Assembly (NCBI RefSeq): GCF_018274385.1
Contig: NZ_JAAFYZ010000066.1
Span: 1 to 44,548 of the forward strand
Origin: Catenulispora pinistramenti
GTDB lineage: Bacteria > Actinomycetota > Actinomycetes > Streptomycetales > Catenulisporaceae
Length of the DNA: 44,548 bases
Direction of reading: 5' to 3'
Shown here in pieces: positions 8,275 to 40,378 of the stretch. Made by a program: the position numbers and the translations under genes. The notes beneath the pieces are model-generated. The model was not told the origin of the DNA. It saw nothing but the letters and a program-made list of their open reading frames with translations, and searched no databases. The first letter of the stretch is position 1. Each line of letters starts with the position of its first letter.

Positions 8275-9171
8275 CTAGTGCCGATGCGTATTGTCGGGCT
8301 GCGAGGGATCACCGGGATGCTCAAAGCCCGGCGCGTACGCGACAAGCGCCCGGCGGCGCTGGTCGAGCCAGCGGTTGAAGGCGGCCAGGCGGGTCGGGTC
8401 GGTGGCGTCGGTGCGCGGGGCGGGCTCGGCGGGCCGGACTTCGGTTGCGGTGACGGTCGCGAAGTGCCAGCCGAGGCCGGTGCGGACCGGGCCGACACGG
8501 GTGCCGGGCGGCAGGGCGCGGAGCTCGGCGGCGAGGGTGGCCGGGATGTCGTCGAGGGTGGTCCAGCCCAGGGAGACGTCCGGGGCGGTCGCCGCCTCGA
8601 ACGCGGTGCCGGCGACGGTGTGTGTGACGCGGTACCAGGTGCGGGTGCTGGTGTGTGGCGCGGCAGTGCTCGGCGCCGCGGCTGTGCTCGGCGCGGCGGG
8701 CGGGGTCGCGACAGTGACGAGGTTGTAGAGGGCTGACATCTCCGGGGCCGTCGACCAGGCGGCGGCGTTGATGGAGCCCAGGTGCAGGGACTCAGCTTGG
8801 GTGAGTGGCCGAGGCGGGGCAGGCACATCCGCCAAGCGCAACGAGCCGGGCACTGGCACTGGCTGGTCGGCCAAGTCCGCAGCCGCCGGAAGTCGCTCTT
8901 CCTCGGCGCCCCGCACCCGAGCCGACTCCACCCGACAAAGCTCCTCGGTCAGCAGCACCTGCGCCGTCCATCGCAGAAACTGCCGATCCTCCTTGCTCCC
9001 CACCGCCGGCAGGCGCGCGGCCAGGCGCCCGGTGCGCAGCTCGCGGACCCGGGCTTCCAGACGCTCGCGCGGGATCGGCGTGCCGTCGACCCAGCCGATC
9101 ACCGCTGCCTCGCGTTGTGCTTGCGCGGCGGCAGCGGCGTCGCTGTGGTGGTGCTCGTGCGCGTGCGTCAC
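8275..9171 (-). CDS. Parvulin-like (PpiC/SurA-type) protein coupled to alpha-mannosidase
   Basis: 298 aa from GTG 9171, which overlaps the alpha-mannosidase stop in GTGA (9168-9171), so translation is coupled. A His-rich start (THAHEHHHSD) is followed by GWVDGTPIPRERLEARVREL, a SurA-N-like helix pattern, and near residue 215 by GWTTLDDIPATLAAELRAL, PPGTRVGPV and TGLGWHFATV, which match the rotamase fold of parvulins. Homologues in this position are often misnamed malonyl-CoA:ACP transacylase; I see no GHSLGE motif. There is no signal peptide, so it should be cytosolic. The coupling suggests a dedicated folding or assembly role for the very large mannosidase. This is inference. Confidence 0.65.
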   Translation of the reverse strand: MTHAHEHHHSDAAAAAQAQREAAVIGWVDGTPIPRERLEARVRELRTGRLAARLPAVGSKEDRQFLRWTAQVLLTEELCRVESARVRGAEEERLPAAADLADQPVPVPGSLRLADVPAPPRPLTQAESLHLGSINAAAWSTAPEMSALYNLVTVATPPAAPSTAAAPSTAAPHTSTRTWYRVTHTVAGTAFEAATAPDVSLGWTTLDDIPATLAAELRALPPGTRVGPVRTGLGWHFATVTATEVRPAEPAPRTDATDPTRLAAFNRWLDQRRRALVAYAPGFEHPGDPSQPDNTHRH

Positions 9172-13559: not shown

Positions 13560-13590
13560 GGCCCCTCCTTGAAACCCACCCGAACGAGCA

Positions 13591-13606
13591 ACTAAAGCGC
13601 TAAAGC
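13591..13606. promoter_or_regulatory. Candidate LacI-type operator between GH38 and LacI genes
   Basis: The 62-bp gap between GTG 13559 (minus) and ATG 13622 (plus) holds ACTAAAGCGCTAAAGC. Its centre AGCGCT (13596-13601) is a perfect palindrome and is the core found in many LacI-family operators, for example the streptomycete CebR site. The flanks (TAA and AAA) are AT-rich but not symmetric. The position suits repression of both genes by the LacI protein. Confidence 0.5.
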
Positions 13607-13621
13607 AGCTGGGAGTCATTA

Positions 13622-25857: not shown

Positions 25858-27717
25858 ATGACGGTACGGCACAGTGGATCAGCCACACCCCGGTTCGCCT
25901 CGGTGGTGCGCGTCTTCTTCATCACCGTGGGTGTCGTCAGCCTGGTGCTCGGCTATCTGGGCCTTGACCGCTATCTCGGCCTTCCCGGCCAGCACTACAG
26001 CCACGCCCCCAGCGACCTCATCTACTTCGATCTCGAGCTGTTCCTGATCCAGTCCACTCCCCTGGCCATGGGCGGCCCGTTTCCGTGGCAGCTGTCGGTG
26101 GCTCGGTTCAGCGCGCCGAGTGTCGCCCTCTACGCCATCGCGGAGATCGTGGTCGCGGTCTCGGCCCGGCGGGTACGACGCGCCTGGCTGCGGCGCTCCC
26201 GCAATCACGCCGTCGTCTTCGGCACGACCCGCATCGCCTCGGTGGTGGTCGAAAGGCTGCGGGCGCAAGGGAAACGGGTCCTGGTGGTGCGACCGGACAG
26301 CGCCGCCGACCCGGTCGGGTTCGACAACGTCCTGGACGACCGCTGGACTGTCGTCGGTGTCCCGGCCTCGCAGCGGACGCTGACCGATGCCGGGGTCCGG
26401 CGGGCGTCGGCGGTCTACGCGTGCCTGGACCGCATCGAGGACAACTCCGAGGTCGCCTACGCGATCGAGGCGTGGCGGCGCGGGCAGCGCTTCCCGGAGC
26501 GGGTCTACGCCTCGATCGACGACCTCGACCTGTGCACGGCGCTGAAGGCCCGCCGCTGGTCGATGGCCGGGGCGGGTCGTTCCCACGTCGACTTCTTCAA
26601 CCGCGACGAACTCGCCGCGCAGACCGTCGTGCGCCGGGACCGGGCCGCCATCGACGGGCCCGCGCCGCACATAGCGATCTCCGGCACCGGTGCTTTCGCC
26701 CGCTCGGCGCTTGTCGAACTGGGACGGCAGCGGCTCAGCCGCACGGACCAGAGCGAGGACCCGATCACCATCGTGCTGGTCGGGGCGGACGCCGATACCG
26801 TCGGGTCGCGGCTGCGGGAGCAGTATCCGTTCCTGCGCGAGGTGTGCGTCATCGAGCCCTGGCTCACCTCGCTCTCCCAGCTGTTCGACGCGCGCCGGCA
26901 GGCGCACGCGCCGCGCCTGCGCCGGCTGTATCTGTGCCAGAGCGATGAGCGCGACGCCCTTGCCGACGCCTTGACCTGTGGCTCCTATCTGAGCGCGATG
27001 GACGGCGTGGTGGTCCGGCTGGACCGGATGTCGCAGATGGCTGACATGTTCCACGGCGGCGGCCGCCCCGGCACCCTGTTCGACGCCCTGGACGGCCGGC
27101 TGGAGTTGGTCGACGTCACCGAGGTCGGCTGCGATCCGGACCGCATCGGCGACGACCTCGCCGACAGCCTGGCCCGGTCCATCCATCGCAGGTATCTGAC
27201 CGACCAGTTGAGCGCCGGCCGGTCCTGGCACTCGACCGCGTCCATGACCGGCTGGGACGAGCTCCCGCCGGATCTGCAACGCGGGAACCGGGAACAGGCC
27301 GAGGACGTCGGCCGCAAACTGGCCTCGATCCGCTGTCTGCTGACCCCGCTGCGCCAGAGCGTCGAGCCGTTCCTCTTCCGGCCCGCCGAGATCGAGACCC
27401 TGGCCGAGGCCGAGCACGCCCGGTGGGCCGCCGAGCGCCGCCGGAGCGGCTGGCGCCACGGTCCCCGCCGCGACGACGCGCGCCGCGTGCACCCCGGGCT
27501 GGTGCCGTGGCCGGTGCTGCCCGAGGACCTGCGGCAGAAGGATCGGTTGTTCATCAGGGCCCTGCCGGCGTTGCTGAGCGACATGGGGCTGGCGGTCGTG
27601 CGGGTGCCGGAGCGCCACGACGAGCCCGGCCGACCGGCGCCGCCCCACGCACAGAAGTCCGCCGACACCCCGAGCGCCCACGCGGCGATCCCCATCCTGG
27701 GAGTGGATCTGTGGTGA
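25858..27717 (+). CDS. Membrane protein with two Rossmann (TrkA-N-like) domains and a C-terminal RyR domain
   Basis: 619 aa. The N-terminal ~105 residues hold hydrophobic segments at about 15-38 and 80-102 with a pore-like stretch LELFLIQSTPLAMGGPFPW between them, reminiscent of two-helix K+ channel proteins. Two nucleotide-binding Rossmann units follow: VVFGTTRIASVVVERL (about 118) and IAISGTGAFARSALVEL (about 271). The last ~80 residues match the RyR repeat: LAEAEHARWAAERRRSGW, then HPGLVPWPVLPEDLRQKD. AGGGGAGGGG precedes the ATG. Its stop is 11 bases before the SLOG gene. TrkA/RyR proteins are linked to nucleotide-signal conflict systems. A role as sensor or ion-flux effector is my inference. 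Confidence 0.75.
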   Translation: MTVRHSGSATPRFASVVRVFFITVGVVSLVLGYLGLDRYLGLPGQHYSHAPSDLIYFDLELFLIQSTPLAMGGPFPWQLSVARFSAPSVALYAIAEIVVAVSARRVRRAWLRRSRNHAVVFGTTRIASVVVERLRAQGKRVLVVRPDSAADPVGFDNVLDDRWTVVGVPASQRTLTDAGVRRASAVYACLDRIEDNSEVAYAIEAWRRGQRFPERVYASIDDLDLCTALKARRWSMAGAGRSHVDFFNRDELAAQTVVRRDRAAIDGPAPHIAISGTGAFARSALVELGRQRLSRTDQSEDPITIVLVGADADTVGSRLREQYPFLREVCVIEPWLTSLSQLFDARRQAHAPRLRRLYLCQSDERDALADALTCGSYLSAMDGVVVRLDRMSQMADMFHGGGRPGTLFDALDGRLELVDVTEVGCDPDRIGDDLADSLARSIHRRYLTDQLSAGRSWHSTASMTGWDELPPDLQRGNREQAEDVGRKLASIRCLLTPLRQSVEPFLFRPAEIETLAEAEHARWAAERRRSGWRHGPRRDDARRVHPGLVPWPVLPEDLRQKDRLFIRALPALLSDMGLAVVRVPERHDEPGRPAPPHAQKSADTPSAHAAIPILGVDLW

Positions 27718-27728
27718 GGTCCAGGATC

Positions 27729-28208
27729 ATGTACCGCATCGGAATCACCGGCCACCGCACCTTCGACGCTCCGACGTCCGACCTGATCGGCGTGGCCCTG
27801 CGGCGGATCGTGGAGGCTTATCAGCCTCATGATCTGGTCGGGGTGTCGAGTCTGGCCGAGGGTGCCGACACGATGTTCGCCCAGGCCGTCGCCGACCGGG
27901 GCGGCCGGCTGGAAGTGGTCGTGCCGGCGGCCCGCTACCGCGAGTCCCTGTCGGCGTCGCACCGCCGTACCTACGACGATCTGCTGGCTCGGGCCGCGGC
28001 CGTGCACCGCCTGGCGTTCATCGAGTCCGACGGCCCCGCCTACCTGGCCGCGGGCGTGCGGATGCTGAAGATGATCGACCGGCTGGTCGCGGTCTGGGAC
28101 GGGTTGCCGGCCCGGGGATCGGGCGGGACCGCGGAGGTCGTCAGCGGCGCCTGGGAGCGCGGTCTGCCGGTCGACGTGGTGTGGCCGGCGGGCGCCCGGC
28201 GGGTGTGA
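27729..28208 (+). CDS. SLOG-type (LOG/DprA-like) nucleotide-binding protein
   Basis: 159 aa. It opens with YRIGITGHRTFDAP, the Rossmann-like start of SLOG proteins, followed by VGVSSLAEGADTMFAQAV, equivalent to the phosphate-binding G-A-D loop, and a late MIDRLVAVWDG strand. SLOG domains bind or produce modified nucleotides or ADP-ribose-like ligands in conflict systems. ATG 27729 has GAGGT eight bases upstream. An in-frame GTG at 27714 would overlap the RyR gene stop by GTGA, matching other junctions in this locus, so the start is open. It is most likely co-transcribed with the RyR gene. Confidence 0.75.
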   Translation: MYRIGITGHRTFDAPTSDLIGVALRRIVEAYQPHDLVGVSSLAEGADTMFAQAVADRGGRLEVVVPAARYRESLSASHRRTYDDLLARAAAVHRLAFIESDGPAYLAAGVRMLKMIDRLVAVWDGLPARGSGGTAEVVSGAWERGLPVDVVWPAGARRV

Positions 28209-28237
28209 TCGCCCCGGGCGAGCCCCACACCTGCGTC

Positions 28238-28266
28238 TTGTCGCCTCTGGGATGCGGTGCAATGCT
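28238..28266 (+). promoter_or_regulatory. Possible internal promoter before fxsA
   Basis: TTGTCG (28238-28243), 17 bp, AATGCT (28261-28266) would start transcription about 44 bases before fxsA. Both boxes are weak, but the 108-bp gap here is one of only two real gaps in the locus. Confidence 0.35.
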
Positions 28267-28316
28267 GAACTACGAGAAATGCTCGCCATTCGCTCGTATC
28301 GGACAGGGAGAGGGCA

Positions 28317-28457
28317 ATGGGCTTCGAGGGGGAACTCCTGGTTTCCAACATCCCGGCGGTGGACGACGTGCCGCTGGCCATGCTGGCCGGCGACGACGAC
28401 CTGGCGGTGGCCGACGAAACCGACGTCCCGGTGGCCGAGTTCCAGTCGTCGGTGTGA
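28317..28457 (+). CDS. fxsA: FxSxx-COOH precursor peptide (FxsA)
   Basis: 46 residues, too short for most gene callers. It starts MGFEGELL at ATG 28317 with GGGAGAGGG just upstream and ends V-A-E-F-Q-S-S-V, so the C-terminus is F-x-S-x-x-COOH, the hallmark of this RiPP-type family. The acidic middle (SNIPAVDDVPLAMLAG, DDDLAVADETD) serves as leader. The radical SAM partner FxsB starts inside its stop codon (GTGA, 28454-28457), which gives coupled synthesis of substrate and enzyme. Known Fxs maturases form a cyclophane crosslink from the Phe ring to a nearby residue of the F-x-S motif. Whether the product is released or signals inside the cell is unknown. Confidence 0.88.
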   Translation: MGFEGELLVSNIPAVDDVPLAMLAGDDDLAVADETDVPVAEFQSSV

Positions 28458-30724
28458 GTTCGCGGCCGGCGAGCGCGCCGGGGACGGTCGGCGTCGTGTT
28501 CCGTCAGTTCGTCGTCAAGATCGCCGGACGCTGTGATCTCGCCTGCGATCACTGCTACGTCTTCGAACACGCCGACCAGTCCTGGCGCGGTCGCCCCAAT
28601 CTCATGCCACCGGAGATCATGACGGCGGTGGCCGCCCGGATCGCCGAACACGCGAGGGCGCACGCGTTGGCCGGCGTGACCGTGATCCTGCACGGCGGGG
28701 AGCCGCTGCTGGCCGGGGTGGACCGTATCAGGTTCCTTATCAGGGAGCTGCGGGCGGCGCTGCCGCCGGGCTGCGCGGCCGACTTCCGCATCCAGACCAA
28801 CGGACTTCGGCTCGACGACGCCTTCTGCGAGCTGTTCCTCCAAGAGGGCGTGGGTGTCGGGATCTCCATCGACGGCGATAAGGGGGCGAACGACCGGCAC
28901 CGCCGGCACGCGGACGGCCGCACCAGCTACCCCGAGCTCGTCCGGGCGATCCGGCTGATCGGGTCGCAGCGGTACCGGCCGGTCTTCAACGGGCTGCTGT
29001 GCACGATCGACGTCGAGAACGATCCGGTCGAGGTCTTCGACGCGCTGTCCGCCTTCGCTCCGCCGCGCGTGGAGTTCCTGCTGCCGCACGCCACGTGGGT
29101 GAATCCGCCGCCCGGAGCGGTCGCGGGCGAACCCCGCTACGCGCAGTGGCTGCTGGCCGTCCATCAGCGGTGGGCCGAACGCGGGCGCCCGATGGACGTC
29201 CGGCTCTTCCACTCGGTCGCCGACCTGATCGCCGGGCGGACCAGCCGCACCGAGGCCATCGGCTTGGGGCCGACGGACGTCGTGGTCGTGGAGACCGACG
29301 GCGAGATCGAACAAGAGGACTCGCTCAAGACCGCCTACGACGGGGCGCCGGCGACCGGCTTCCACGTCAGCCGCGACAGTTTCGACGAGGCGGGATCGCA
29401 CCCGGGTTTCGACGGGCGGACGGCGAACGCGGCCGCGCCGAGCCCGGTCTGCGAACGCTGCCCCGTCCTGCGGATCTGCGGCGGCGGGTTGTACGCGCAC
29501 CGCTACGACGGCTCCGGATTCGCCAACCCGTCCGTCTACTGTCGGGACCTCTATACGTTCATCACCAGTCTGGCCAATGAGCGCCACCAGGCCCCGAAGA
29601 TCGCCCGGCATCGGATGGGCGCCGCCGACTTCGCAGCCCTGGGCCGTGGTCAGGGCACTGAGGACGCGGTCGCCGCGTTGCGGACGGCGCAGCTGAGCAA
29701 GGCCCGCGTCAAGCTCGGCCAGTTGTCCAAGCCGCTGCGGGCCGAGCACAGCTGGGCCCTGGTCCAGGAATTCGACACGCGCGACCGCAGCGTGGTCAAC
29801 CGGGTCCTGGCCGATCCGTTCCTGATGCCGGCCGAGGGCCGGGACGCGCTGGGGCCGGCCGGGACGCTGGCCAGGATCGCCCTGAGCTGCGCGGTGCTGA
29901 GTTCGACGCCGGCGGAGCTCGATCTGGTCGCGGCCGAGGACCGGCTCGCGCTTCCGGCCGTGGGCACGCTCGCCACGGCCGCGGGGCCGTGGCACGTCGC
30001 GGTGGACGAGAAGGCGGCGATCACCGTGAACGGCCTGAGCGTCGAGCCGATCCGCCACGAGGCGCGCATAGGTCCGATCACCGTACGGCTGGAGGACCAC
30101 GACCCGGCCCGGGACCGGTTCGGGCATCCGGTGTCCGGGCCGTTGTCCGCCGCCGAGCTCTTCGCCTGGCAGGACGACCTCGACGCGGCCGCCGAAGTGC
30201 TCGCCGAGCGGCACCCCGAGGCGCTGGCCGAGATGGCCGAGGGCCTGACGGCCGTCGTCCCGCTGAAGCCGCACCCCGGGCGCCACCGGAGCGCGACGGC
30301 GCGCAACGCGTTCGGCGCGCTGGGGGTGGCGCTGCCCGATCCGGCCGCCGACACCGCCGGCGAGGCCCTCACCTGCCTGCTGCTGCACGAGTTCCAGCAT
30401 CTGAAGCTCGGCGCCGTGCTCGACATGTTCGACTTGCATGACAAGTCCGACGCGAGCAGCTATCCGGTCGGCTGGCGCCGGGATCTGCGCTCCCTGGAGG
30501 CCGTGCTCCAGGGTACGTACGCGCACATGGCCGTTGCCGAGTACTGGCAAAGGCGTGCTCTGGCTACGCGCCATCCCGGCAGCCAGGAGTTCGCGCGGCG
30601 TTCGGCGCAGGTCGCCGGACACGTCAGGGCGGCCCTGGCCCAGATCACCGCCAGCCCGGCGCTGACCCGGCTGGGCCGGCAATGGGTCGCCGAGATGGCC
30701 GCCGGAGCCGCGCGATGGCGCTGA
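28454..30724 (+). CDS. fxsB: FxsB: radical SAM/SPASM peptide maturase with C-terminal HExxH domain
   Basis: 756 aa from GTG 28454, overlapping the fxsA stop; GTG 28496 is a second option. The radical SAM cluster CxxxCxxC is C27, C31, C34 (CDLACDHCY), followed by ILHGGEPL and the strand FRIQTNGL. SPASM-type cysteines for auxiliary clusters are C333, C336, C342 (CERCPVLRIC) and C363. From about residue 450 a second domain carries HEFQH at 645-649, the HExxH zinc motif typical of this family, function unproven. It installs the crosslink on FxsA. A 116-bp gap with an inverted repeat separates it from the TIR-like gene. Confidence 0.93.
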   Translation: MSSRPASAPGTVGVVFRQFVVKIAGRCDLACDHCYVFEHADQSWRGRPNLMPPEIMTAVAARIAEHARAHALAGVTVILHGGEPLLAGVDRIRFLIRELRAALPPGCAADFRIQTNGLRLDDAFCELFLQEGVGVGISIDGDKGANDRHRRHADGRTSYPELVRAIRLIGSQRYRPVFNGLLCTIDVENDPVEVFDALSAFAPPRVEFLLPHATWVNPPPGAVAGEPRYAQWLLAVHQRWAERGRPMDVRLFHSVADLIAGRTSRTEAIGLGPTDVVVVETDGEIEQEDSLKTAYDGAPATGFHVSRDSFDEAGSHPGFDGRTANAAAPSPVCERCPVLRICGGGLYAHRYDGSGFANPSVYCRDLYTFITSLANERHQAPKIARHRMGAADFAALGRGQGTEDAVAALRTAQLSKARVKLGQLSKPLRAEHSWALVQEFDTRDRSVVNRVLADPFLMPAEGRDALGPAGTLARIALSCAVLSSTPAELDLVAAEDRLALPAVGTLATAAGPWHVAVDEKAAITVNGLSVEPIRHEARIGPITVRLEDHDPARDRFGHPVSGPLSAAELFAWQDDLDAAAEVLAERHPEALAEMAEGLTAVVPLKPHPGRHRSATARNAFGALGVALPDPAADTAGEALTCLLLHEFQHLKLGAVLDMFDLHDKSDASSYPVGWRRDLRSLEAVLQGTYAHMAVAEYWQRRALATRHPGSQEFARRSAQVAGHVRAALAQITASPALTRLGRQWVAEMAAGAARWR

Positions 30725-30753
30725 ATCGTCGTTCGCCACGACGTTGTGCCAGC

Positions 30754-30803
30754 CTGCGAGCGTGAATCCGTGCTGGCATCGCAGACTTCGGATACGCTCG
30801 CAG
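30754..30803. promoter_or_regulatory. Inverted repeat between fxsB and the TIR-like gene
   Basis: CTGCGAGCGT (30754-30763) and ACGCTCGCAG (30794-30803) are perfect 10-base arms. After a 2-base bulge, ATCC/GGAT can extend the stem by 4 bp, leaving a ~20-base loop. It sits 38 bases before GTG 30841. It may be an attenuator, a processing site that sets the ratio of FxsA/B to TIR/FxsC/FxsT, or a protein site. Confidence 0.6.
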
Positions 30804-30840
30804 ACGACGGCACCTTGCCACCGGCATCGAGGAGCGCGCC

Positions 30841-31449
30841 GTGCCAGCCCGTCCGAATCCGCCGTACCCGGTCTTCTTCAGCTATGCCCATATCTCCGGG
30901 GGCGACTTCGACGAGAATCCGAACCGCGCGTTCCACACGTTCTTCGACGACATCGGCAAGATGCTCTACCACCTGACGACGTTCGGCACCGATGTCGCCT
31001 TCGCCGACACCTCGATGCGGGCCGGCGACTCCTTCCAGAAAGTCCTGTTCGAACGGCTGGCGCAGTTCCGGGTCTTCGTGCCGCTGCTGTCCCTGCGCTA
31101 CTTCGAGAGCGAGTGGTGCGGCCGGGAATGGGCCGCGTTCGAGAAGCGCTGCAAGCAGCTGGGTCCGGCCTCGTATCCGCCCATCGTGCCGATCCTGTGG
31201 AACGGCCTGGAGGACCTGAGCCTTCCGGAGTGGTTCACCGAGCGGCATCTGTTCGACGACTCGACCCAGGACAGCCGGTACCGGGAGCACGGGTTCTTCG
31301 GCTTACAGGTCCTTTACCGCGACGACTACCACGCCATGGTGTACGACCTGGCGCGCCGGATCGGTCAGGTGTCGAAATCCGCGGACCTGCCCGACGGCGA
31401 CCCTGAAGATCTTCGCATCCTGCCCCCGCGGTTCGGAGGTTCCCCATGA
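30841..31449 (+). CDS. Stand-alone TIR-like protein of the Fxs locus
   Basis: 202 aa. It begins with the TIR strand YPVFFSYAHIS and shows DTSMRAGDSFQKVLF, then RVFVPLLSLRYFESEWCGREWAAFE, the TIR pattern around the conserved Trp/Glu; E and W side chains are present, but I cannot prove NADase residues. The N-terminal half resembles that of FxsC, so the two are paralogues. GTG 30841 has GAGGAG upstream. Its stop overlaps the fxsC start in ATGA (31446-31449). TIR domains either cleave NAD-type nucleotides or act as adaptors. In Fxs loci both TIR proteins are of unknown role. Confidence 0.88.
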   Translation: MPARPNPPYPVFFSYAHISGGDFDENPNRAFHTFFDDIGKMLYHLTTFGTDVAFADTSMRAGDSFQKVLFERLAQFRVFVPLLSLRYFESEWCGREWAAFEKRCKQLGPASYPPIVPILWNGLEDLSLPEWFTERHLFDDSTQDSRYREHGFFGLQVLYRDDYHAMVYDLARRIGQVSKSADLPDGDPEDLRILPPRFGGSP

Positions 31450-32651
31450 CGGACGACCCGGCGAAGCCGTCGGGCGGCGGCCCGGTCTTCTTCCTCAGCT
31501 ACGCGCGGCCGAGCGTGTCAGAGCGCGTGCAAGGGGATCCCGACCGCGATTTCGCAGCGTTCTACTACGACCTGTGCGCCGCGCTCACGCGGTTCGCGCC
31601 GTTGGACCGCCTGCACAGCCTCGGCGCCGTCAGCGGGGAATGGAACGCCCCGGCTGGTTCCGGAGCGACGGACCCGGCGAAGGACATCGCCGAATGCGAC
31701 GTCTTCGTGCCGCTGCACCAGGAGCGGTACTTCCAGAACGAGCAGTGCGGCAAGGAACTGGCGGCCTTCGAGGCGCGGGTAAGGCTGGCCGGGACGCCGC
31801 GCGCCGACGCGATCCTGCCGGTCCTGTGGGCGCCGGTCCCGCCGCAGTGGGCCGCCGCGCAACCGGCGCCGTATCGGACCGGGCAGGCCGACGTCGACGA
31901 CGAGTACCTGGACAAGGGCCTGTTCTGGTTGCAGGGCGCGTATCCGGCGCGGTACCGGCAGGTCGTGGAGGGCCTGGCGCGGCGGGTCGCGGAGATCGCG
32001 GCCGGCCGCACAGTCGGCCGGGTCGCAGCCGCCGATCTGGCCCACGTGCAGAGCTCGCTGCGGCAGGCTGACCGGCAGCCGTTGGTGGTCGTCCTGCTGG
32101 CACCGACTCTGCACCGGCCGCGGGAAGCCGCCGGCCGGCAGTTCGGCCCGGCGATCACCGACTGGGCCCCGTTCTCGGCCGAGACTTCCCGGCCGCTGGC
32201 CGACATCCTGGTGGGACTGGCCCGGGACAAGGGCTGGGAGCCACAGGTGGTGCCGTTCAGTACCGAGGACGCGCGGCTGTTCGGCGAGACCGAACCCGAC
32301 TCCCAGGTGGTCCTGGTCGTCAATCCGCTGGTGGTGGACGACGACATCTGGCGGGCGGCGCTCCAGCGCTTCGACCGGATCGACAAGCCGTGGATCGGCG
32401 TCGTCGTCGCCTGGGATCCGGCCGGGGTGCCGGATGCGGAACTGCACCGCCTGCGGGCCGAACTCCAGCGCGTCCTGGACCGGAAGTTCGCCCGCCGCAG
32501 CCCCTCGCTGCGGATCAACGCCCCGATCGCCACCTCGTTGCAGAGCTTCGACCTGGCTTTGGACGCCACCGCCAACCACACCCGGATACAGCTGGCGAAC
32601 CACCTGCTCAGCCCTGCCAGCGACCCCGCCGAGGAAGAGAACCACACATGA
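31446..32651 (+). CDS. fxsC: FxsC: TIR-like protein with Fxs-specific C-terminal domain
   Basis: 401 aa. TIR-like N-terminus: GPVFFLSYARPS (about 12-23), then DIAECDVFVPLHQERYFQNEQCGKELAAFE and LPVLWAPVPP. Compared with classical TIR domains, it has a longer insert (DPDRDFAAFYYDLCAALTRF). From about residue 205 (QPLVVVLLAPTLHRP) begins a second alpha/beta domain with PFSTEDARLF and VVLVVNPLVVDDDIW, typical of FxsC proteins. It overlaps both neighbours by four bases (ATGA on each side), so it is made in step with the TIR-like protein and FxsT. Confidence 0.92.
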   Translation: MTDDPAKPSGGGPVFFLSYARPSVSERVQGDPDRDFAAFYYDLCAALTRFAPLDRLHSLGAVSGEWNAPAGSGATDPAKDIAECDVFVPLHQERYFQNEQCGKELAAFEARVRLAGTPRADAILPVLWAPVPPQWAAAQPAPYRTGQADVDDEYLDKGLFWLQGAYPARYRQVVEGLARRVAEIAAGRTVGRVAAADLAHVQSSLRQADRQPLVVVLLAPTLHRPREAAGRQFGPAITDWAPFSAETSRPLADILVGLARDKGWEPQVVPFSTEDARLFGETEPDSQVVLVVNPLVVDDDIWRAALQRFDRIDKPWIGVVVAWDPAGVPDAELHRLRAELQRVLDRKFARRSPSLRINAPIATSLQSFDLALDATANHTRIQLANHLLSPASDPAEEENHT

Positions 32652-35600
32652 GCGACCAGTCGGGCGAGATCATCACCTTCTACTCCTACAAAGGCGGCTG
32701 CGGACGGACGATGGCCCTGGCCAACGCCGCCTGGATCCTGGCCGCCAACGGGAAACGGGTCCTGACCGTCGACTGGGATCTGGAGGCGCCCGGCCTGGAC
32801 AAGTTCTACCGGCCGTTCATCGACCAGGCCGCGCTCAGCGAGCACCTGGGGGTCAGCTTCCTGATCACCAACTACGAGTCCGCGATCAAGGAGACGGCCA
32901 GCCGCGGCGACCAGCCGCGCGCCGCCCGGCGCACCGCGCCCAGCGTCATCGCCAGCCGGTTCACCCAGCTGGCCGAGCACGTCATCCCGGTCCGCTGGGA
33001 GTTCCCCTCGGGCGGCCGGCTCGACTTCCTGCCGGCCGGCGCCAGCAACCGGGAGTACGGCACCGGGATGTCCGGCTTCGAGTGGGACAAGTTCATGCAG
33101 GACTTCCACGGCGACGAGTTCATCGAGGCGCTGCGCTCGGCGATGCGGCGGGACTACGACTACACCCTGATCGACAGCCGCACCGGGATGAACGACGTCG
33201 GCGACCTGTGCACGGCGCTGCTGCCGGACACCCTGGTGATCGGCTTCGCCCTGAGTGACCAGAGTCTGGAGGGCGCCTCCGACGTGGCCCAGCGGGTCAC
33301 CGGCTACGACGTCGACGCGACCATAAGGATCCTGCCGGTCCCGATGCGGATCGAGGACGCCGAGACCGACAAGAAGGACGCCGGTCTGGCCAAGGCACAG
33401 GCACTGTTCCAGCGTTATGTCACCGGCAAAGCCCCGCACGAGTACTGGGGCAAGGTGCAGATCCCCTACAAGACCTTCTACGCCTACGAGGAAGTCCTGG
33501 CCGGGTTCGGCGACCGTCCCGGACAGCCCGGGTCCCTGCTCGCCGCCTTCGAGCGGCTGACCGACGAGATCAGCGACGGCTCGGTGAGCGCGCTGCCGCC
33601 GCTGCCGGAGGAGGAACGCACCGACTTCCTGCGGACCAGGTTCACCCGGCGCAAGCCCGAGACGCCCGCGGAGATCCTGCTCAGCTACGTCTCCGAGGAC
33701 CGGCCCTGGGCCGAGTGGATGACGACGGTCCTGGAGTACTCCGGGCTGCGGGTCCGGACCCAGCGCGAGGCCGAGTTCACGGTCGCGCCGGACGCCTTGG
33801 GCCTGGCGGTGAAGTCGGCCAAGCGCATCATCGCCCTGGTATCAGAGTCCTACCGCACCGCACTGGAGCACGACGCGCTGTTGGGCGCGCTCCAGCTGGC
33901 GGACCCGGGCAAGACCCGCGGTCTGGTGGTGCCCTGCCGGGTGGACGCGACGACGGTCGAGCAGGCCTTCCCCACCCGGATGCTGGTCGAGCTGGACCAG
34001 TTGGACCAGGCCACCGCGTTGCGGCAACTGAGCCAGATCCTGGACGTCACGTTGCGCGCGCCGGCCGCGCTGCGCTATCCCGGCGCGAAGCCGGAGATCT
34101 GGCTGGTGCCGGAGAAGAACCCGAACTTCACCGGACGCACCAAGATCATCGATGAGCTGCGCGAACTGCTGCGGGCCGGGAACACCACCTCGTTGCGCGC
34201 ACTGCACGCCGCCGGCGGGTTCGGCAAGACGCAGATCGCCATCGAGTACGCCGACCGGTTCAAGTCCAGCTACGACATCGTGTGGTGGATCCGCAGCGAG
34301 GAGCCGAACCGCGCGGTGGAGGCGATGGCACAGCTCGGCGACCGGCTCGGGCTGCGGGCGGCGACCGACGTGGCGACCGTGGACCGGGTCAAGGACGCGC
34401 TGCGCCGGGGCGAGCCGTTCAAGCGGGCGCTGCTGATCTTCGACAACGTGGGGCAGGCGGACACGATCGCGGGCCTGGTGCCGGTCGGCGGCTCGACCCA
34501 CATCCTGATCACCACCCGGGACCGGGAGGTCGCGGCCGGCAGCACGGCGCCGCTGAACGTCGACACCTTCGCCCGCGAGGAGAGCATCGCGCTGCTGCAC
34601 CGGCATGTGCCGCAGATGGAGCGGCAGGAGGCGGACCACCTCGCCGAGACACTCGGCGACGTGCCGATCGACATCGACGCGGCCGGCAAGTACATCCGCG
34701 AGACCGCGGTGTCGGTGGACGATTACCTGGCCCGGGTGCCGGTGTCGGTCCGGGGGGCGGTGTGGCTCGCGGCGATCGAGCAGGTCCAGACCGCCTCGCC
34801 GGCCGCGTTGCGGATGATGGAGCTGTTCGCGTACTTCGGCGGCGAGCCGGTGGACCGCGCGATCCTCTACAGCGAGCAGTTCGCCAAGGTCCTCGCCGAC
34901 TACGACCCGGTCCTGACCGTCGACCGGGCGCTGCTCGGCGACTACGCCGCCGCGCTCAACCGGTTCGGGCTGCTGCGCATCGACCAGGTCCACGGGTTCA
35001 CGATGCACCGCGCGCTCCAGGAGTTCCTGCGGCCACGGCTCGTCGAGCAGGGGGTGGCCGAGCGGGCCCGGCTTTCGGTGCAACAGATTCTGGCCCTGTC
35101 CCGACCTACGAGCGGGGACACCGACGACCCCGAGAACCGGGCGGCGTTCGCCCGGATCTGGCCGCACCTGAGCGCCTGCGAGGCCGAGACCAGCACCGAG
35201 GAGAACGTCCGGCAGCTGCTGATGGACCAGGTGCGGCACCTGTCGCTGACCGGCCAGCTGACCGAGGCCGAGCAGATCGCCGGGAACCTGCTGACGCTGT
35301 GGACCGCGCAGTCCGGCGACAACGACCGGACCGTGCTGCGGCTGCGGTTCCTGCTGGCGAACGTGCTTCGGAACGTCGGCCGGGCCCAGGAGTCCTACGA
35401 GATCGACATGGACGTCGCCCGCCGGCAGGAGGACATCCTGCCGGAGAACCATCCCGAGCGACTCAACACCCTGGCAAGTGTCGGCGCCGATCTGCGCGCC
35501 GTGGGCCGCTTCGGGGACGCGCGGTACATCGACCAGATCTGCTACGACGTGACCCGCAAATCGTCCGAGCACGGCCGGGCGGCCCTGCGCGCCGCGCACA

Positions 35601-36523
35601 ACTACGCCTTCTCACTGGCGGTGACCGGCGACTGTTACGCGGCGCGCGACCTGGACCGGCAGCTGTACAACGACGAGAAGCAGATCTTCGGCTACGAGCA
35701 CCCGTGGACCCTGAACACCGCCATCAACCTCGGCCGGGACCTGCGCGACTGCGGCGACTACGCGGGCTCCATCCGACTTCTCGAAGCCGTTCTGCGACGG
35801 TGCAAGGAACGGCGGGGCGAGTACGACCCCTACACCCTGGAGTCCGCCAAGGGCCTGGCCGTGGCGCTGCGCAAGGCCGGCCGGCACGCGGACGGCCTGG
35901 CCCAGACCAAGAACGTGGTGAAGGCGTTCGAGGCGGTGTTCGGCCCGAACGGGGCCGAGACCCTGTCCTGCAAGCTCAACTTCGCCTGCGACCTGTCCGC
36001 GGCCGGCAGCCGGGACCTCGCGCTCGAAGCGGCCAGGGAGATGCGCGAGCAGTACGAGAAGCACTTGGGCAGCACGCATCCGCACACGCTCGCCAGCGCC
36101 AACAACGTCGCGATCTATCTGCGGACCACCGGCAAACCCGAGGACTCCCGCGAGCTCGCCACGGCGACCTTCGACGGGCTCACGGACGTGCTCGGTGCGG
36201 AGCACCCGTTCACCCTCTATTGCGCCGTCAACCTCGCCAACGCGACAGCGGACTGCGACCTCCTCGACGAGGCCGCGGCCCTGCTCGACGCCGCCCTGGA
36301 ACACCTGGAGGCCGTGCTCGGGCCCGATCACCCCAGCACGATCGTCACCGTGGCGAACCGCGCCGTGGTGACGCACCGCCTGGGTCTGGAGACCGAGGCG
36401 GAGGCGGCCAGGAACGCGGCGCTGGAGCAGTTGAAGGCCGCTCTCGGCCCGGACCACACGACCATCGAGACGTTCCTGGAGTGGCGGCTGGCCAACCGCG
36501 ACCTGGAGCCCTATCGCACCTGA
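32648..36523 (+). CDS. fxsT: FxsT: ParA/MinD-like P-loop, TIR, NB-ARC and TPR protein of the Fxs system
   Basis: 1291 aa. Order: a deviant-Walker P-loop K15-GGCGRT-21 with DWDLEAPGL and TLIDSRTGM (residues 1-335); a TIR-like domain from 341 (AEILLSYVSEDRPWAEW); an NB-ARC NTPase from 491 (NPNFTGRTKIIDEL), with P-loop AAGGFGKT at 521-528, LLIFDNV near 594 and ILITTRDR; then TPR repeats from about 870 to the end, marked by HP-x-T-L repeats (EHPWTLNTAINLG, THPHTLASANNVA). This is a STAND-type signal receptor built into the Fxs locus. The TPRs probably sense a ligand or the modified peptide (inference). The end overlaps the convergent hydrolase gene by 13 bases. Confidence 0.93.
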   Translation: MSDQSGEIITFYSYKGGCGRTMALANAAWILAANGKRVLTVDWDLEAPGLDKFYRPFIDQAALSEHLGVSFLITNYESAIKETASRGDQPRAARRTAPSVIASRFTQLAEHVIPVRWEFPSGGRLDFLPAGASNREYGTGMSGFEWDKFMQDFHGDEFIEALRSAMRRDYDYTLIDSRTGMNDVGDLCTALLPDTLVIGFALSDQSLEGASDVAQRVTGYDVDATIRILPVPMRIEDAETDKKDAGLAKAQALFQRYVTGKAPHEYWGKVQIPYKTFYAYEEVLAGFGDRPGQPGSLLAAFERLTDEISDGSVSALPPLPEEERTDFLRTRFTRRKPETPAEILLSYVSEDRPWAEWMTTVLEYSGLRVRTQREAEFTVAPDALGLAVKSAKRIIALVSESYRTALEHDALLGALQLADPGKTRGLVVPCRVDATTVEQAFPTRMLVELDQLDQATALRQLSQILDVTLRAPAALRYPGAKPEIWLVPEKNPNFTGRTKIIDELRELLRAGNTTSLRALHAAGGFGKTQIAIEYADRFKSSYDIVWWIRSEEPNRAVEAMAQLGDRLGLRAATDVATVDRVKDALRRGEPFKRALLIFDNVGQADTIAGLVPVGGSTHILITTRDREVAAGSTAPLNVDTFAREESIALLHRHVPQMERQEADHLAETLGDVPIDIDAAGKYIRETAVSVDDYLARVPVSVRGAVWLAAIEQVQTASPAALRMMELFAYFGGEPVDRAILYSEQFAKVLADYDPVLTVDRALLGDYAAALNRFGLLRIDQVHGFTMHRALQEFLRPRLVEQGVAERARLSVQQILALSRPTSGDTDDPENRAAFARIWPHLSACEAETSTEENVRQLLMDQVRHLSLTGQLTEAEQIAGNLLTLWTAQSGDNDRTVLRLRFLLANVLRNVGRAQESYEIDMDVARRQEDILPENHPERLNTLASVGADLRAVGRFGDARYIDQICYDVTRKSSEHGRAALRAAHNYAFSLAVTGDCYAARDLDRQLYNDEKQIFGYEHPWTLNTAINLGRDLRDCGDYAGSIRLLEAVLRRCKERRGEYDPYTLESAKGLAVALRKAGRHADGLAQTKNVVKAFEAVFGPNGAETLSCKLNFACDLSAAGSRDLALEAAREMREQYEKHLGSTHPHTLASANNVAIYLRTTGKPEDSRELATATFDGLTDVLGAEHPFTLYCAVNLANATADCDLLDEAAALLDAALEHLEAVLGPDHPSTIVTVANRAVVTHRLGLETEAEAARNAALEQLKAALGPDHTTIETFLEWRLANRDLEPYRT

Positions 36524-37503
36524 GCCCCGGCCTTGACCATCCAGCCCAACAGATGCGGGAAGTACCGGACCGCACCGAAGTGCGCCTCTCCCGGATCCAC
36601 GTCCAGCACCGCGTGCGGGATCCGGGAGGCGAGCCAGCGGGAGTGGCCCGGTGGTGAGTGCACGTCGGTGCCGCCGTGCCAGACCAGGGTCGGGCAGCGG
36701 ATGTCCGCGGGGTCGAAGCCCCACGGGGAGCAGAAGGCGACGTGGTCGTCGAACTGTCCGGCCAGGTAGGTCGGCACCGGCTCGGCCGGATCGAGGGCGA
36801 GTTCGGCCGGGTCCAGGGCGATGAGGTTGTCGGGGTTGGTCACCGCGTTGCGGAAGCCGGCGAGCAGCAGGCCCCTGATGCGGCTGTCGGAGACGATCCG
36901 GCGGTCGGCGACCGGCAGTTCGTCGAACAGCCGCTCGGCGATGAAGTCGGTGGCCAGCGCGCCGGTGTCGACGGCCAGGCTGAGCTTCATGGCCGGCATC
37001 AGGGCCGGGTTGTCCAGCGCGGCGCGGGTCAGTTGGTAGGCCGCCACGTTCGAGTCGATCATGCCGGCGTACCAGTCCAGACCCGGGGCGTCGTATGGCG
37101 CGATGCTCACCAGCGCGACCACCGAGCGCACCCGGTCGGGCAACAGCGCGCCGCACGCCAGCGCGTGCGGACCGCCCCCGGAGCGGCCGGACACCGAGAA
37201 GGTCTCCAGGCCCAGCTCGTCGGCGACCGCGAGCACGTCCTGGGCGACCGAGGCCACGTCACGGCCGGCGCGGCGGTCGGACATGCCGTATCCGGGGCGG
37301 TCGATGGCGATCAGCCGCACCCGGCGGCGGGACAGCTCGAAGGGCCGCGGCAGCACGCCGATCCGGCTGCCCGGGGTGCCGTGCAGGAAGAAGATGGGAT
37401 AACCGTTCCAGGGCCCTGATTCGGCGAACGCGACCCGCCCGCCGTCGGCCCTGGTGGCCACCCCGGACCGGTTGCCGGCGACGGACTCTGTGAGCTGGGT
37501 CAT
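36511..37503 (-). CDS. Alpha/beta hydrolase
   Basis: 330 aa from ATG 37503 (GAGAGG 7 bases upstream). The oxyanion loop FFLHGTPGS, the strand LIAIDRPGYGMSD, the nucleophile elbow GRSGGGP (Ser) and the late GGTDVHSP (acid) and GEAHFGAV (His) give a complete triad. No signal peptide, so it should be cytosolic. The relatives are non-specific esterases, epoxide hydrolases or haloperoxidase-like enzymes, and the substrate is not deducible. It faces the Fxs locus and overlaps fxsT by 13 bases, so it is probably not part of that system. 37504-37733 shows no gene. Confidence 0.9.
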   Translation of the reverse strand: MTQLTESVAGNRSGVATRADGGRVAFAESGPWNGYPIFFLHGTPGSRIGVLPRPFELSRRRVRLIAIDRPGYGMSDRRAGRDVASVAQDVLAVADELGLETFSVSGRSGGGPHALACGALLPDRVRSVVALVSIAPYDAPGLDWYAGMIDSNVAAYQLTRAALDNPALMPAMKLSLAVDTGALATDFIAERLFDELPVADRRIVSDSRIRGLLLAGFRNAVTNPDNLIALDPAELALDPAEPVPTYLAGQFDDHVAFCSPWGFDPADIRCPTLVWHGGTDVHSPPGHSRWLASRIPHAVLDVDPGEAHFGAVRYFPHLLGWMVKAGAQVR

Positions 37504-37733
37504 CGGACGCCTCTCAGCGCGGCGGTCGTCGGAGCGGATCCGCTCGACTTCATACGGTAACCGACTTCTGGAATGCGGTAATCCTGCCAGACGATGGAAA
37601 GCCGACGCGACACCGGGGCGCACCGCACCGATGGGCCGTCTTAGCCATGGTTACGCCGAACCGCACCGGCCACAACCACCAGAGGCCGCCCTCCTTCGAG
37701 CCGGTGATGCAGAGCCCTGTTTCGCGCCCCGCA

Positions 37734-38842: not shown

Positions 38843-38871
38843 TTGACGAAAGTCGGGCGCGGTGCTTCACT
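38843..38871 (+). promoter_or_regulatory. Probable promoter of the chitinase operon
   Basis: TTGACG (38843-38848), 17 bp, TTCACT (38866-38871). The start near 38878 would give a leader of about 88 bases that contains the dyad at 38888-38911. Confidence 0.5.
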
Positions 38872-38887
38872 CCCCATCGACCAGCAG

Positions 38888-38911
38888 TGTTACGAGACTG
38901 TTTCTGTAACA
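38888..38911. promoter_or_regulatory. Imperfect dyad in the chitinase leader, candidate LacI operator
   Basis: TGTTAC (38888-38893) and GTAACA (38906-38911) are perfect arms of a 24-bp dyad. Inside lies GAGACTGTTTC, close to the GAAAC/GTTTC pattern common in LacI operators. It lies just after the predicted transcription start, a normal repressor position. Confidence 0.45.
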
Positions 38912-38965
38912 ACTCGGGTCGGTTCAGCTGTATGCCATCTCCACCCCCACAAAGGAGCCAGCACA

Positions 38966-40378
38966 GTGATCCCACCTCCCAAACGACTCAGACCCCTGCG
39001 GACCGCCCTCGCGGGAGCCTGCGTCCTCGGCACCGTCGCGACGGCGGCGGCGCTCAGCACTCCGGCGAACGCGGCCACCACCCACGCCGCAGCCGCCACG
39101 CACGCCGCCGCCACCCACCACGCCGCGGCCGCCATCCCCGCCCACTTCGCCGCACCGTATCTCCAGATCAGCGACAGCGACGCCGGCGACATGGCCGCCG
39201 ACATGAGCTCCTCCGGTGTCTCCCGGTACTCGCTGGCCTTCTTGACATCGCAGTCCGGCTGCACCCTGCAGTGGGAGGACGGCGGCGACGGGGTCGGCGC
39301 CTTCACCTCGCAGATCAATTCCCTGAAAGCCGCCGGCGGGGACGTCATCCCCTCCTTCGGCGGGGCGGGCAGCACCGAGCTGGCGCAGTCGTGCACCGAC
39401 GTATCGTCGTTGACCGCGGCGTACAAGAACGTCGTCGACACCTACGGCGTCACCCGGCTCGACTTCGACATCGAAGGCGACGTGATCAACGACACCGCCT
39501 CGACGACCCGCCGCGACCAGGCACTGGCGGCGCTCCAGCAGGAGGAGCCGGGGGTGCAGATCGACTTCACACTCTCGGTCGATCCCGGCGGTCTGCCGCC
39601 GGAGGGCCTGAGCCTGCTGCAGGACGCGAAGAACCAGGGCGTGAACGTCAGCGTCGTCAACTTGATGACGATGGACTACGGCGACGGCCAGCCGGTCATC
39701 AACGACGCGCTGTCCTCCGCGCAAGGGGGCGCCAGTCAGCTGGCGAACCTGTACGGCATATCCACCGCGGCGGCGTACGCCAAGGAGGGCCTGACCCCGA
39801 TCGCCGGCACCAACGACGACGGCTCCGTGTTCTCCCAGGGCGACGCCCAGACCCTGGAGAACTTCGCCAGCACCAACGGCGTCGCAGAGCTCTCCTTCTG
39901 GGAGGTCGACGCCTACGACAAGGGCGCGGGTTACGCCTACTCCCGGATCTTCAACGCCATCACCGGGACCAGCGGCGGCAATCCGCCCCCGCCGAACGGC
40001 TCCGGTCCGATCACCGGCTACCAGGGTCTGTGCCTGGACGACCGCGGCGCCTCGACGGCCAACCTCAACCCGGTCCAGGTCTACACCTGCAACGGGAGCA
40101 ACGCGCAGAGCTGGACCGTCAACTCCTCGAACAACACCCTCCAGGACCTCGGCAAGTGCCTGGACATCAACAGCGCCGGCACTGCCGACGGCACCACCGT
40201 CGACCTCTACGACTGCAACGGAACCGGAGCTCAGGTCTGGGTCCCGCAGTCCAACGGGGAGCTGCGGAACCCGGCGTCCGGGCGCTGCCTGGACGACACC
40301 GGCTTCGGCGGATCCGGAACCCAGGCCCAGATCTGGGACTGCGCCGACTCCTCGAACCAGAAGTGGACGCTGCCATGA
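38966..40378 (+). CDS. Secreted GH18 chitinase with C-terminal ricin-type lectin domain
   Basis: 470 aa from GTG 38966 (AAGGAG 9 bases upstream). A Sec signal (RLRPLRTALAGACVLG core, cleavage near 36 after ANA) is followed by an Ala/Thr/His-rich linker (37-57). The GH18 barrel has the catalytic DxxDxDxE-type motif LDFDIEGD with E170 as acid. It resembles the short chitinases that attack chitin or GlcNAc chains. Residues 349-470 are a ricin-B lectin (CBM13) with QxW-type repeats (NAQSW, NQKW) that should bind sugar chains. Stop and next start overlap in ATGA (40375-40378). The lectin is almost identical to the one in the next gene. Confidence 0.93.
   Translation: MIPPPKRLRPLRTALAGACVLGTVATAAALSTPANAATTHAAAATHAAATHHAAAAIPAHFAAPYLQISDSDAGDMAADMSSSGVSRYSLAFLTSQSGCTLQWEDGGDGVGAFTSQINSLKAAGGDVIPSFGGAGSTELAQSCTDVSSLTAAYKNVVDTYGVTRLDFDIEGDVINDTASTTRRDQALAALQQEEPGVQIDFTLSVDPGGLPPEGLSLLQDAKNQGVNVSVVNLMTMDYGDGQPVINDALSSAQGGASQLANLYGISTAAAYAKEGLTPIAGTNDDGSVFSQGDAQTLENFASTNGVAELSFWEVDAYDKGAGYAYSRIFNAITGTSGGNPPPPNGSGPITGYQGLCLDDRGASTANLNPVQVYTCNGSNAQSWTVNSSNNTLQDLGKCLDINSAGTADGTTVDLYDCNGTGAQVWVPQSNGELRNPASGRCLDDTGFGGSGTQAQIWDCADSSNQKWTLP
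40009..40374 (+). repeat. 366-bp direct repeat, copy 1 (ricin-lectin code)
   Basis: Copy 1 of a duplicated coding segment in the chitinase gene. It aligns without any gap to 40491-40856. Only 8 of about 122 residues differ between the encoded lectins, four of them in one short stretch (NSSNN versus DSASS). Confidence 0.95.

What the first reader, a model, noticed from the sequence alone, without database searches (positions are those of the whole stretch)
28317..28457. 46-residue FxsA peptide ending F-Q-S-S-V, translationally coupled to its maturase
The short gene has a strong ribosome site and ends exactly as F-x-S-x-x-COOH. Its stop codon shares GTGA with the fxsB start. The only Phe in the second half is this one, so the crosslink site is predictable. 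Automated annotation would probably miss this gene.
Basis: partly seen in the sequence, partly recalled or inferred. Interest (0 to 1): 0.7.

Follow-up and report, generated by a model that had tools for sequence, protein, structure and literature searches.

The report
Cyclophane peptide gene beside its maturase
A soil actinomycete carries a tiny, easily missed gene for a peptide that its neighbouring enzyme probably staples into a small ring and then hydroxylates, inside a known family of immune-like gene clusters; the family is known, but the pairing between the peptide's last residues and the state of the second enzyme domain gives a testable rule.

Summary
Window 28317-28457 encodes a 46-residue peptide ending FQSSV, just upstream of an FxsB-type radical SAM/SPASM gene (TIGR04269, 506.6 bits, cut-off 370). 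Of 158 non-redundant FxsB loci, 134 have a short ORF ending F-x-S-x-x upstream, against 1 of 975 short ORFs on the opposite strand. NCBIfam's FxsA model misses this peptide but hits 5 of 10 family peptides tried. It is a new member of a known kind: FxSxx-COOH cyclophane peptides of FxsABCT systems.

Possibly new: precursors with an intact HExxH have Ala one or two residues before the ring Phe in 110 of 113 rows, against 8 of 80 without. On loci examined only after the rule was noted: 9 of 9 against 4 of 18. Only five supported independent tree pairs exist, so shared ancestry is not excluded.

The parts
28317..28457 (+). fxsA: 46-aa precursor ending PVAEFQSSV; predicted crosslink F42-S44; predicted hydroxylation near V39-A40-E41 or on Q43
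28305..28314 (+). purine-rich ribosome-binding-like stretch AGGGAGAGGG
   Evidence: sequence; identical in L051, altered in L055
28454..30724 (+). fxsB: radical SAM/SPASM maturase fused to an HExxH domain (start GTG 28454 overlapping the fxsA stop, or GTG 28496)
28499..29572 (+). radical SAM/SPASM domain of FxsB (CxxxCxxC at residues 27-34)
   Evidence: TIGR04269 506.6 bits; PDB 9gm3 ChlB E=8.4e-82
30179..30697 (+). HExxH peptide beta-hydroxylase domain, HEFQH at 30386-30400
   Evidence: TIGR04267 120.5 bits; PDB 22nu E=1.8e-39 over residues 392-755
30841..31449 (+). short FxsC-like TIR protein (start codon uncertain)
   Evidence: NF040588 118 bits, under its cut-off of 130; TIR_2 38.5 bits
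31446..32651 (+). FxsC: TIR-like N-terminus plus FxsC C-terminal domain
   Evidence: TIGR04276 80.7 bits (cut-off 55); NF040588 121.2 bits (cut-off 130)
32648..36523 (+). FxsT: KGGVGR ParA-like ATPase, TIR_2, NB-ARC and TPR in one protein
   Evidence: NF040586 820.3 bits (cut-off 300), NF047398 129.1 bits (cut-off 90); Pfam TIR_2, NB-ARC, TPR_12
27729..28208 (+). flanking gene, possibly SLOG-like; neighbour, not core
   Evidence: YAcAr 14 bits, under its cut-off of 28.2; homologue in 12 of 76 examined loci, one duplicate pair included
25858..27717 (+). flanking TrkA_N plus RyR domain gene; neighbour, not core
   Evidence: homologue in 6 of 76 examined loci, one duplicate pair included

Best explanation
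The gene encodes FxsA, the precursor of a peptide modified at its C-terminus. FxsB's radical SAM domain joins the ring of Phe42 to the beta-carbon of Ser44, a three-residue cyclophane (minus 2 H). Its fused HExxH domain then adds a beta-hydroxyl to the pre-cyclised tail, most likely at or beside V39-A40-E41 (net about +13.98 Da). No exporter family was among the matches of the 19 window ORFs scanned, and the next genes encode TIR and ParA-like/TIR/NB-ARC/TPR proteins; I infer that the mature peptide acts inside the cell as a self ligand or signal for the NLR-like protein FxsT. Shown here: the genes, their homology, the recurring gene set, and the association of HExxH state with the precursor motif. 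Inferred from relatives: crosslink and hydroxylation. Inferred only: the site of the hydroxyl and the immune-like role.
For: FxsB domains over curated cut-offs; homology to solved ChlB (9gm3) and to the chain 22nu over the HExxH part. FxSxx tail upstream in 134 of 158 FxsB loci. MscB, given as IPR026335, is reported to join C4 of Phe to C-beta of Ser (PMC11002830, passages; that IPR026335 is the FxsB family is recalled). A radical SAM-fused HExxH enzyme is reported to beta-hydroxylate Asp and His, depending on a pre-installed cyclophane (PMC12636437, passages). An FxsT homologue (tblastn E<=1e-8) lies in 76 of 76 FxsB stretches of at least 9 kb (L053 and four with upstream or partial matches included). 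Exporters: 19 ORFs scanned. Ala at F-1 or F-2: 110 of 113 with intact HExxH against 8 of 80 without; also where HExxH is a separate gene (8 of 9 rows) and on loci examined after the rule was noted (9 of 9 against 4 of 18).
Against: No peptide was measured. The site of hydroxylation is not shown; the Ala rule may reflect recognition. The enzyme described in PMC12636437 targets Asp and His, and the last ten residues here hold neither. On the tree of 193 rows only 5 supported independent pairs exist (Ala goes with HExxH in 3.8, against in 0.2, no difference in 1.0); on the first 131 rows it was 4.0 with and 1.0 against; neither can reach 0.05. Pagel's test gives LR 49.9 for Ala but also 33.6, 30.7 and 31.4 for three of four control columns (4.3 for the fourth), so it is inflated by shared ancestry. 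Nothing measured links the peptide to FxsT or to TIR activity; most of the window's other ORFs were not scanned for exporters.
Confidence: 0.6

Rival explanations
1. FxsA is crosslinked only; the HExxH domain is structural or inactive on this peptide (final product minus 2 H).
For: 54 of 131 rows keep the extension without the HExxH motif, so the extension can persist without catalysis.
Against: The window's domain keeps HEFQH and scores 120.5 bits against a cut-off of 40; its tail has the Ala typical of intact systems.
Confidence: 0.2
2. The hydroxyl goes on Gln43, inside the ring, and the Ala residues before Phe serve only recognition or space.
For: X=Q in 52 of 103 intact against 8 of 77 lost systems; PMC12636437 (passages) reports HExxH enzymes that hydroxylate Gln residues.
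Against: X=Q is not significant on the tree (LR 4.3, p 0.37); in the first set 40 of 77 intact systems have another residue there, 33 of them Asn.
Confidence: 0.25
3. The HExxH domain is a metallopeptidase that cuts FxsA, as proposed in the 2020 eLife paper.
For: PMC7159879 section 24 (read in full) reads it as a zincin-like peptidase releasing the C-terminal peptide.
Against: PMC12636437 (passages) reports that a radical SAM-fused HExxH protein is an alpha-ketoglutarate-dependent iron hydroxylase, contrary to its earlier annotation; NCBIfam names TIGR04267 a peptide beta-hydroxylase.
Confidence: 0.1
4. The ORF is a chance reading frame and the true precursor lies elsewhere.
For: No NCBIfam model recognises it.
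Against: Position and tail (134 of 158 loci against 1 of 975 opposite-strand ORFs); frame and tail kept in L055.
Confidence: 0.02

Closest known systems
FxSxx-COOH cyclophane RiPP peptides (TIGR04268) and SjiA family (NF040585)
   Same: Short ORF directly before fxsB, tail F-x-S-x-x-COOH, leader with a VPL-like stretch that recurs in many of the 134 rows (by eye)
   Different: The window peptide is not hit by either model at E<=1, nor are those of L055, L047, L082 and L182; the other 5 of 10 peptides tried hit TIGR04268, 4 of them above its cut-off
FxsB / MscB-type cyclophane synthases (TIGR04269; IPR026335 by recall)
   Same: Radical SAM/SPASM domain well over cut-off, CxxxCxxC
   Different: Fused to an HExxH domain; at 509.2 bits it lies near the bottom of the fused members listed (up to 613.9 bits)
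Radical SAM-HExxH fusion ChlB/ChlH (Morishita et al. 2024; paper not held; known here from PMC12636437 passages and PDB names)
   Same: Same two domains by sequence
   Different: ChlH is reported to hydroxylate His and Asp; here the ring motif is Phe-Gln-Ser, with no His in the peptide and no Asp in its last ten residues
Standalone FxSxx peptide-processing conflict systems with ParA-like AP-ATPase (PMC7159879 section 24)
   Same: Peptide, radical SAM, HExxH protein, and AP-ATPase with TPR and ParA-like domain
   Different: HExxH fused to FxsB; two TIR/FxsC genes in tandem; TIR and ParA-like parts in one protein with NB-ARC and TPR

Membership tests
FxsABCT / FxSxx-COOH triceptide system | Short ORF next to fxsB ending F-x-S-x-x | tested here: met
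FxsABCT / FxSxx-COOH triceptide system | FxsA model TIGR04268 over its cut-off | tested here: not met
   The model also misses 4 of the 9 relatives' peptides tried that sit before fxsB, so this is read as a gap of the model; a model score is a tool for finding the family, and membership rests on tail, position and FxsB
FxsABCT / FxSxx-COOH triceptide system | FxsB radical SAM/SPASM over cut-off | tested here: met
   506.6 against 370 bits
FxsABCT / FxSxx-COOH triceptide system | FxsC and FxSxx TPR protein downstream | tested here: met
   TIGR04276 80.7 against 55; NF040586 820.3 against 300 bits; NF040588 121.2, under its cut-off of 130
FxsABCT / FxSxx-COOH triceptide system | Phe-Ser cyclophane in the product | not testable with these tools
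   needs mass spectrometry or NMR
aKG-HExxH peptide beta-hydroxylase | TIGR04267 over cut-off with intact HExxH | tested here: met
   120.5 against 40 bits; HEFQH 645-649
aKG-HExxH peptide beta-hydroxylase | Alpha-ketoglutarate-dependent hydroxylation of the precursor | not testable with these tools
   enzyme assay needed
Inactivated-HExxH FxsBH form (NF040587) | Loss of the HExxH motif | tested here: not met
   motif intact; profile 98.3 bits against a cut-off of 225

The most novel reading that the evidence does not exclude
In the Fxs family the residues just before the ring are written for the second enzyme domain. Where an HExxH hydroxylase is intact, fused or separate, the precursor has Ala at F-1 or F-2 (110 of 113 rows), most often V-A-A-F. 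Where it is lost, F-1 is Ser or Thr in 60 of 80 rows against 9 of 113. The bold reading is that Ala is the substrate and is oxidised to a serine-like residue, so that a hydroxyl beside the ring is either installed by the enzyme or encoded by the gene. L082, with a lost HExxH and APEGSF where intact relatives with a similar leader have VAVAAF, looks like a recent natural switch.
Probability: 0.25. Interest if true: 0.65.

Novelty: new member of a known kind. Interest (0 to 1): 0.42.

Why it matters
The peptide class, its radical SAM enzyme and the fused hydroxylase are known. This locus extends the precursor family to a clade that the NCBIfam models tried miss, and corrects the expected product mass. 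The pairing of HExxH state with the residues before the ring turns 'what does the second domain do in these immune-like clusters?' into a direct test by co-expression and MS/MS, with natural losses as controls.

Tried and rejected
Chance ORF: rejected by position and tail. Structured RNA leader upstream of fxsA: 28209-28320 folds no better than shuffles (z 0.57). Sigma-70-like promoter in 27900-37700: none found; one terminator-like site, fewer than expected. PADLOC: of 8 proteins, only a weak viperin match to the radical SAM domain and PDC-M28B matches to FxsT's ATPase part. Q in the ring as the HExxH signature: strong by counts, not on the tree. Pagel's test as decisive: rejected, because X=N, S+1=A and end=L also reach p 9e-7 to 4e-6. 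Ser/Thr at F-2 as the partner of lost HExxH: weak on the tree (0.4 with, 0.7 against, 4.0 no difference), while Ser/Thr at F-1 goes with loss in 3.0 pairs and never the other way. FxA tails read as 'Ala that becomes Ser': weakened, since such tails also occur without HExxH (L122; L329).

Rows and definitions. One search used L047-L207 and the window; the shorter loci L001-L046 were not used. Three duplicates (L147, L163, L187) and L207 (no match at the threshold) dropped out, leaving 158. Of the 24 without an F.S.. tail, by my reading: 13 have a related tail, 7 have short FxsB proteins, 1 is cut, 3 show none. Of the 134, 3 short or cut rows were dropped. In this first set 'intact' means HE[FYVI][QN]H late in FxsB; in later sets any HE..H within a hit of my own HExxH HMM, fused or separate; 'lost' for separate genes means not found in the stretch held. 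The 24 class-level rows were picked by me; duplicates and rows without a tail were left out, and so were tails judged chance in L242, L263, L146 and one of two in L260. In L240, L260 and L262 the precursor is not directly upstream (+1520, -2640, -2759). The 13 variant rows were taken tails. In one search, 13 of 40 loci had no F.S.. tail and 27 were counted; L300 and L309 (doubtful tails) count there (4 of 18) but not (4 of 16). Exceptions: intact without Ala L137, L192, L264; lost with Ala L097, L119, L130, L225, L321, L323, L330, L333. Trees are FastTree.

Full report
What is there. The ORF at 28317-28457 encodes a 46-residue acidic peptide (pI about 4.05) ending PVAEFQSSV. A purine-rich stretch precedes its ATG, and its stop overlaps a possible GTG start of the next gene, 28454-30724. 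That product matches FxsB (TIGR04269, residues 16-373, 506.6 bits, cut-off 370) and, at residues 576-748, the HExxH peptide beta-hydroxylase model TIGR04267 (120.5 bits, cut-off 40), with HEFQH at 645-649. By sequence it is related to solved ChlB (9gm3, E 8.4e-82) and to the chain of 22nu/22ob over residues 392-755 (E 1.8e-39). Downstream follow a short FxsC-like TIR protein, FxsC, and a 1291-residue FxsT with ParA-like ATPase, TIR, NB-ARC and TPR parts.

The host. The window lies in an 11.46 Mb assembly of 671 contigs. The best named match to its FxsB is Catenulispora pinisilvae NH11 at 94%, so the genus is probably Catenulispora. The genome holds a second FxsB locus over the cut-off with a different precursor ending FNSAV (L047).

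More than chance. L047-L207 and the window gave 158 non-redundant FxsB loci; 134 have a same-strand short ORF ending F.S.. upstream (134 of 1089 short ORFs in that stretch). On the opposite strand 1 of 975 short ORFs has such a tail; inside fxsB 0 of 375. Of the other 24 loci, 13 show a related tail (FDASL, FNASL, FQSSLL, FESSIG and the like), 7 have a short FxsB without the extension, 1 is cut and 3 show none (my reading). Against L055 the frame survives an in-frame codon indel, third positions change most (6/5/11; 7 synonymous and 10 non-synonymous codons), and the last 12 residues are identical.

Annotation. No NCBIfam model recognises the peptide (best an LPXTG model at E 0.18). Of ten peptides tried, five hit TIGR04268, four of them over its cut-off of 28 bits; those of the window, L055, L047, L082 and L182 do not. 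The own-genome search with TIGR04268 did not list this ORF either, though it scored only 150 of 803 candidates.

Coupling. GTGA is present in the window and L051 but is CTGA in L055; GTG at +42 (28496 in the window) is the other in-frame start in all three. In 118 of 134 rows the precursor stop lies 20 to 180 bases before the first aligned codon of fxsB. Coupling by overlap is at best a local feature.

Chemistry. PMC11002830 (passages) reports that MscB (IPR026335) joins C4 of Phe to C-beta of Ser. PMC12636437 (passages) reports that a radical SAM-fused HExxH protein beta-hydroxylates Asp and His of a precursor that already bears the cyclophane, and that other HExxH enzymes hydroxylate Gln. 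The 2020 eLife paper (PMC7159879, section 24 read in full; passages) read the HExxH protein as a peptidase and describes standalone FxSxx systems with a ParA-like AP-ATPase; the window fits that gene set. The primary triceptide and fusion papers are not held, so a published hydroxylation site in an FxSxx peptide cannot be excluded.

The pairing rule. In the first 131 usable rows, precursors whose FxsB keeps HExxH have Ala at F-1 or F-2 in 75 of 77 cases, against 3 of 54 where the motif is lost; lost sites read RGFRR, EGVQQ, RGFQY and similar. With 13 variant tails and 24 class-level rows the counts are 101 of 104 against 4 of 64. In nine of the added rows the HExxH enzyme is a separate gene, and eight of the nine follow the rule (for example LAGFQSSI, IAGFQSSV); in three of the nine the precursor is not directly upstream. 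I fetched 40 further loci, wrote the rule down, and only then examined them: 9 of 9 intact against 4 of 18 lost. Without two doubtful tails the pooled count is 110 of 113 against 8 of 80; Ser or Thr stands at F-1 in 9 of 113 against 60 of 80.

Limits of the rule. These counts treat related loci as separate. On the tree of 193 rows HExxH state changes at least 8 times; in the 5 supported independent pairs Ala goes with HExxH in 3.8, against it in 0.2 and does not differ in 1.0, too few for significance. On the first 131 rows the figures were 4.0 with and 1.0 against. Pagel's test gives LR 49.9 for Ala but also 33.6, 30.7 and 31.4 for X=N, S+1=A and end=L, and 4.3 for X=Q; only the ranking deserves weight.

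Meaning. The simplest mechanism is cyclisation of F42 to S44, then hydroxylation by the fused domain with the segment before the ring as target or recognition element; the window peptide (V39-A40-E41-F42) follows the intact pattern. In 76 loci of at least 9 kb (the pair L051/L147 is one place), tblastn found an FxsT homologue in 76, FxsC in 69 and the short TIR in 68; the last two queries often fall on one gene, the L053 match is weak, and in L148, L159, L169 and L180 the FxsT match is partial and upstream. An intracellular role beside an NLR-like protein is inferred from this neighbourhood, and from the lack of exporter matches among the 19 window ORFs scanned.

Literature. Searches run: FxsA+FxsB, FxsB or cyclophane (5 of 1198 listed), triceptide/FxSxx terms (21 of 22), HExxH+radical SAM+hydroxylation (8 of 10), HExxH/cyclophane/hydroxylase (12 of 49), Sji/Chl names (15 of 1054, swamped by a disease acronym), and radical SAM+TIR+TPR+RiPP. 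None of the titles or abstracts listed states the pairing rule or a tested function for an Fxs system. These were capped lists from an open-licence library, so this is no proof of absence.

Verdict. A real, easily missed member of a known peptide family, with a corrected product prediction and one possibly new, testable regularity.

Noticed in passing
G000:C555, locus L047: Second fxsA-fxsB-TIR/FxsC-FxsT locus in the same genome, precursor ending VAASFNSAV, HExxH intact; the same type was found at 9 loci of the genus.
   Followed up: partly
L048, L057, L059, L062, L065, L122, L329: Precursor tails with Ala in place of the acceptor Ser (FDASL, FDASI, FNASL, FDAII, FNAGL, FDAAL). The first five have an intact HExxH, L122 and L329 do not.
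   Followed up: partly
L081, L126, L128, L129, L139, L185, L202, L315, L316, L317: F-x-S not exactly five residues from the C-terminus (FSSSVG, FQSSLL, FQSFSSK, FQSKIKG, FNSSLSAP and the like): possible extended precursors.
   Followed up: no
L235, L236, L237, L240, L256, L260, L262, L264, L267: Short FxsB without the extension and a separate HExxH gene in the same stretch; 7 of the 9 precursors have A-G-F before the ring.
   Followed up: partly
L082: Lost HExxH (RGFQY) and APEGSF in place of VAVAAF, with a leader that resembles those of intact relatives such as L188: a natural control pair.
   Followed up: partly
25858-28208: TrkA_N plus RyR protein and a possible SLOG protein just upstream; homologues near fxsB in 6 and 12 of 76 loci (one duplicate pair included), the second often on the other strand.
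   Followed up: partly
38843-40378: Protein with a ricin-type lectin domain and a GH18 match just under its cut-off.
   Followed up: no
9168-13619 (-): GH38-type alpha-mannosidase.
   Followed up: no
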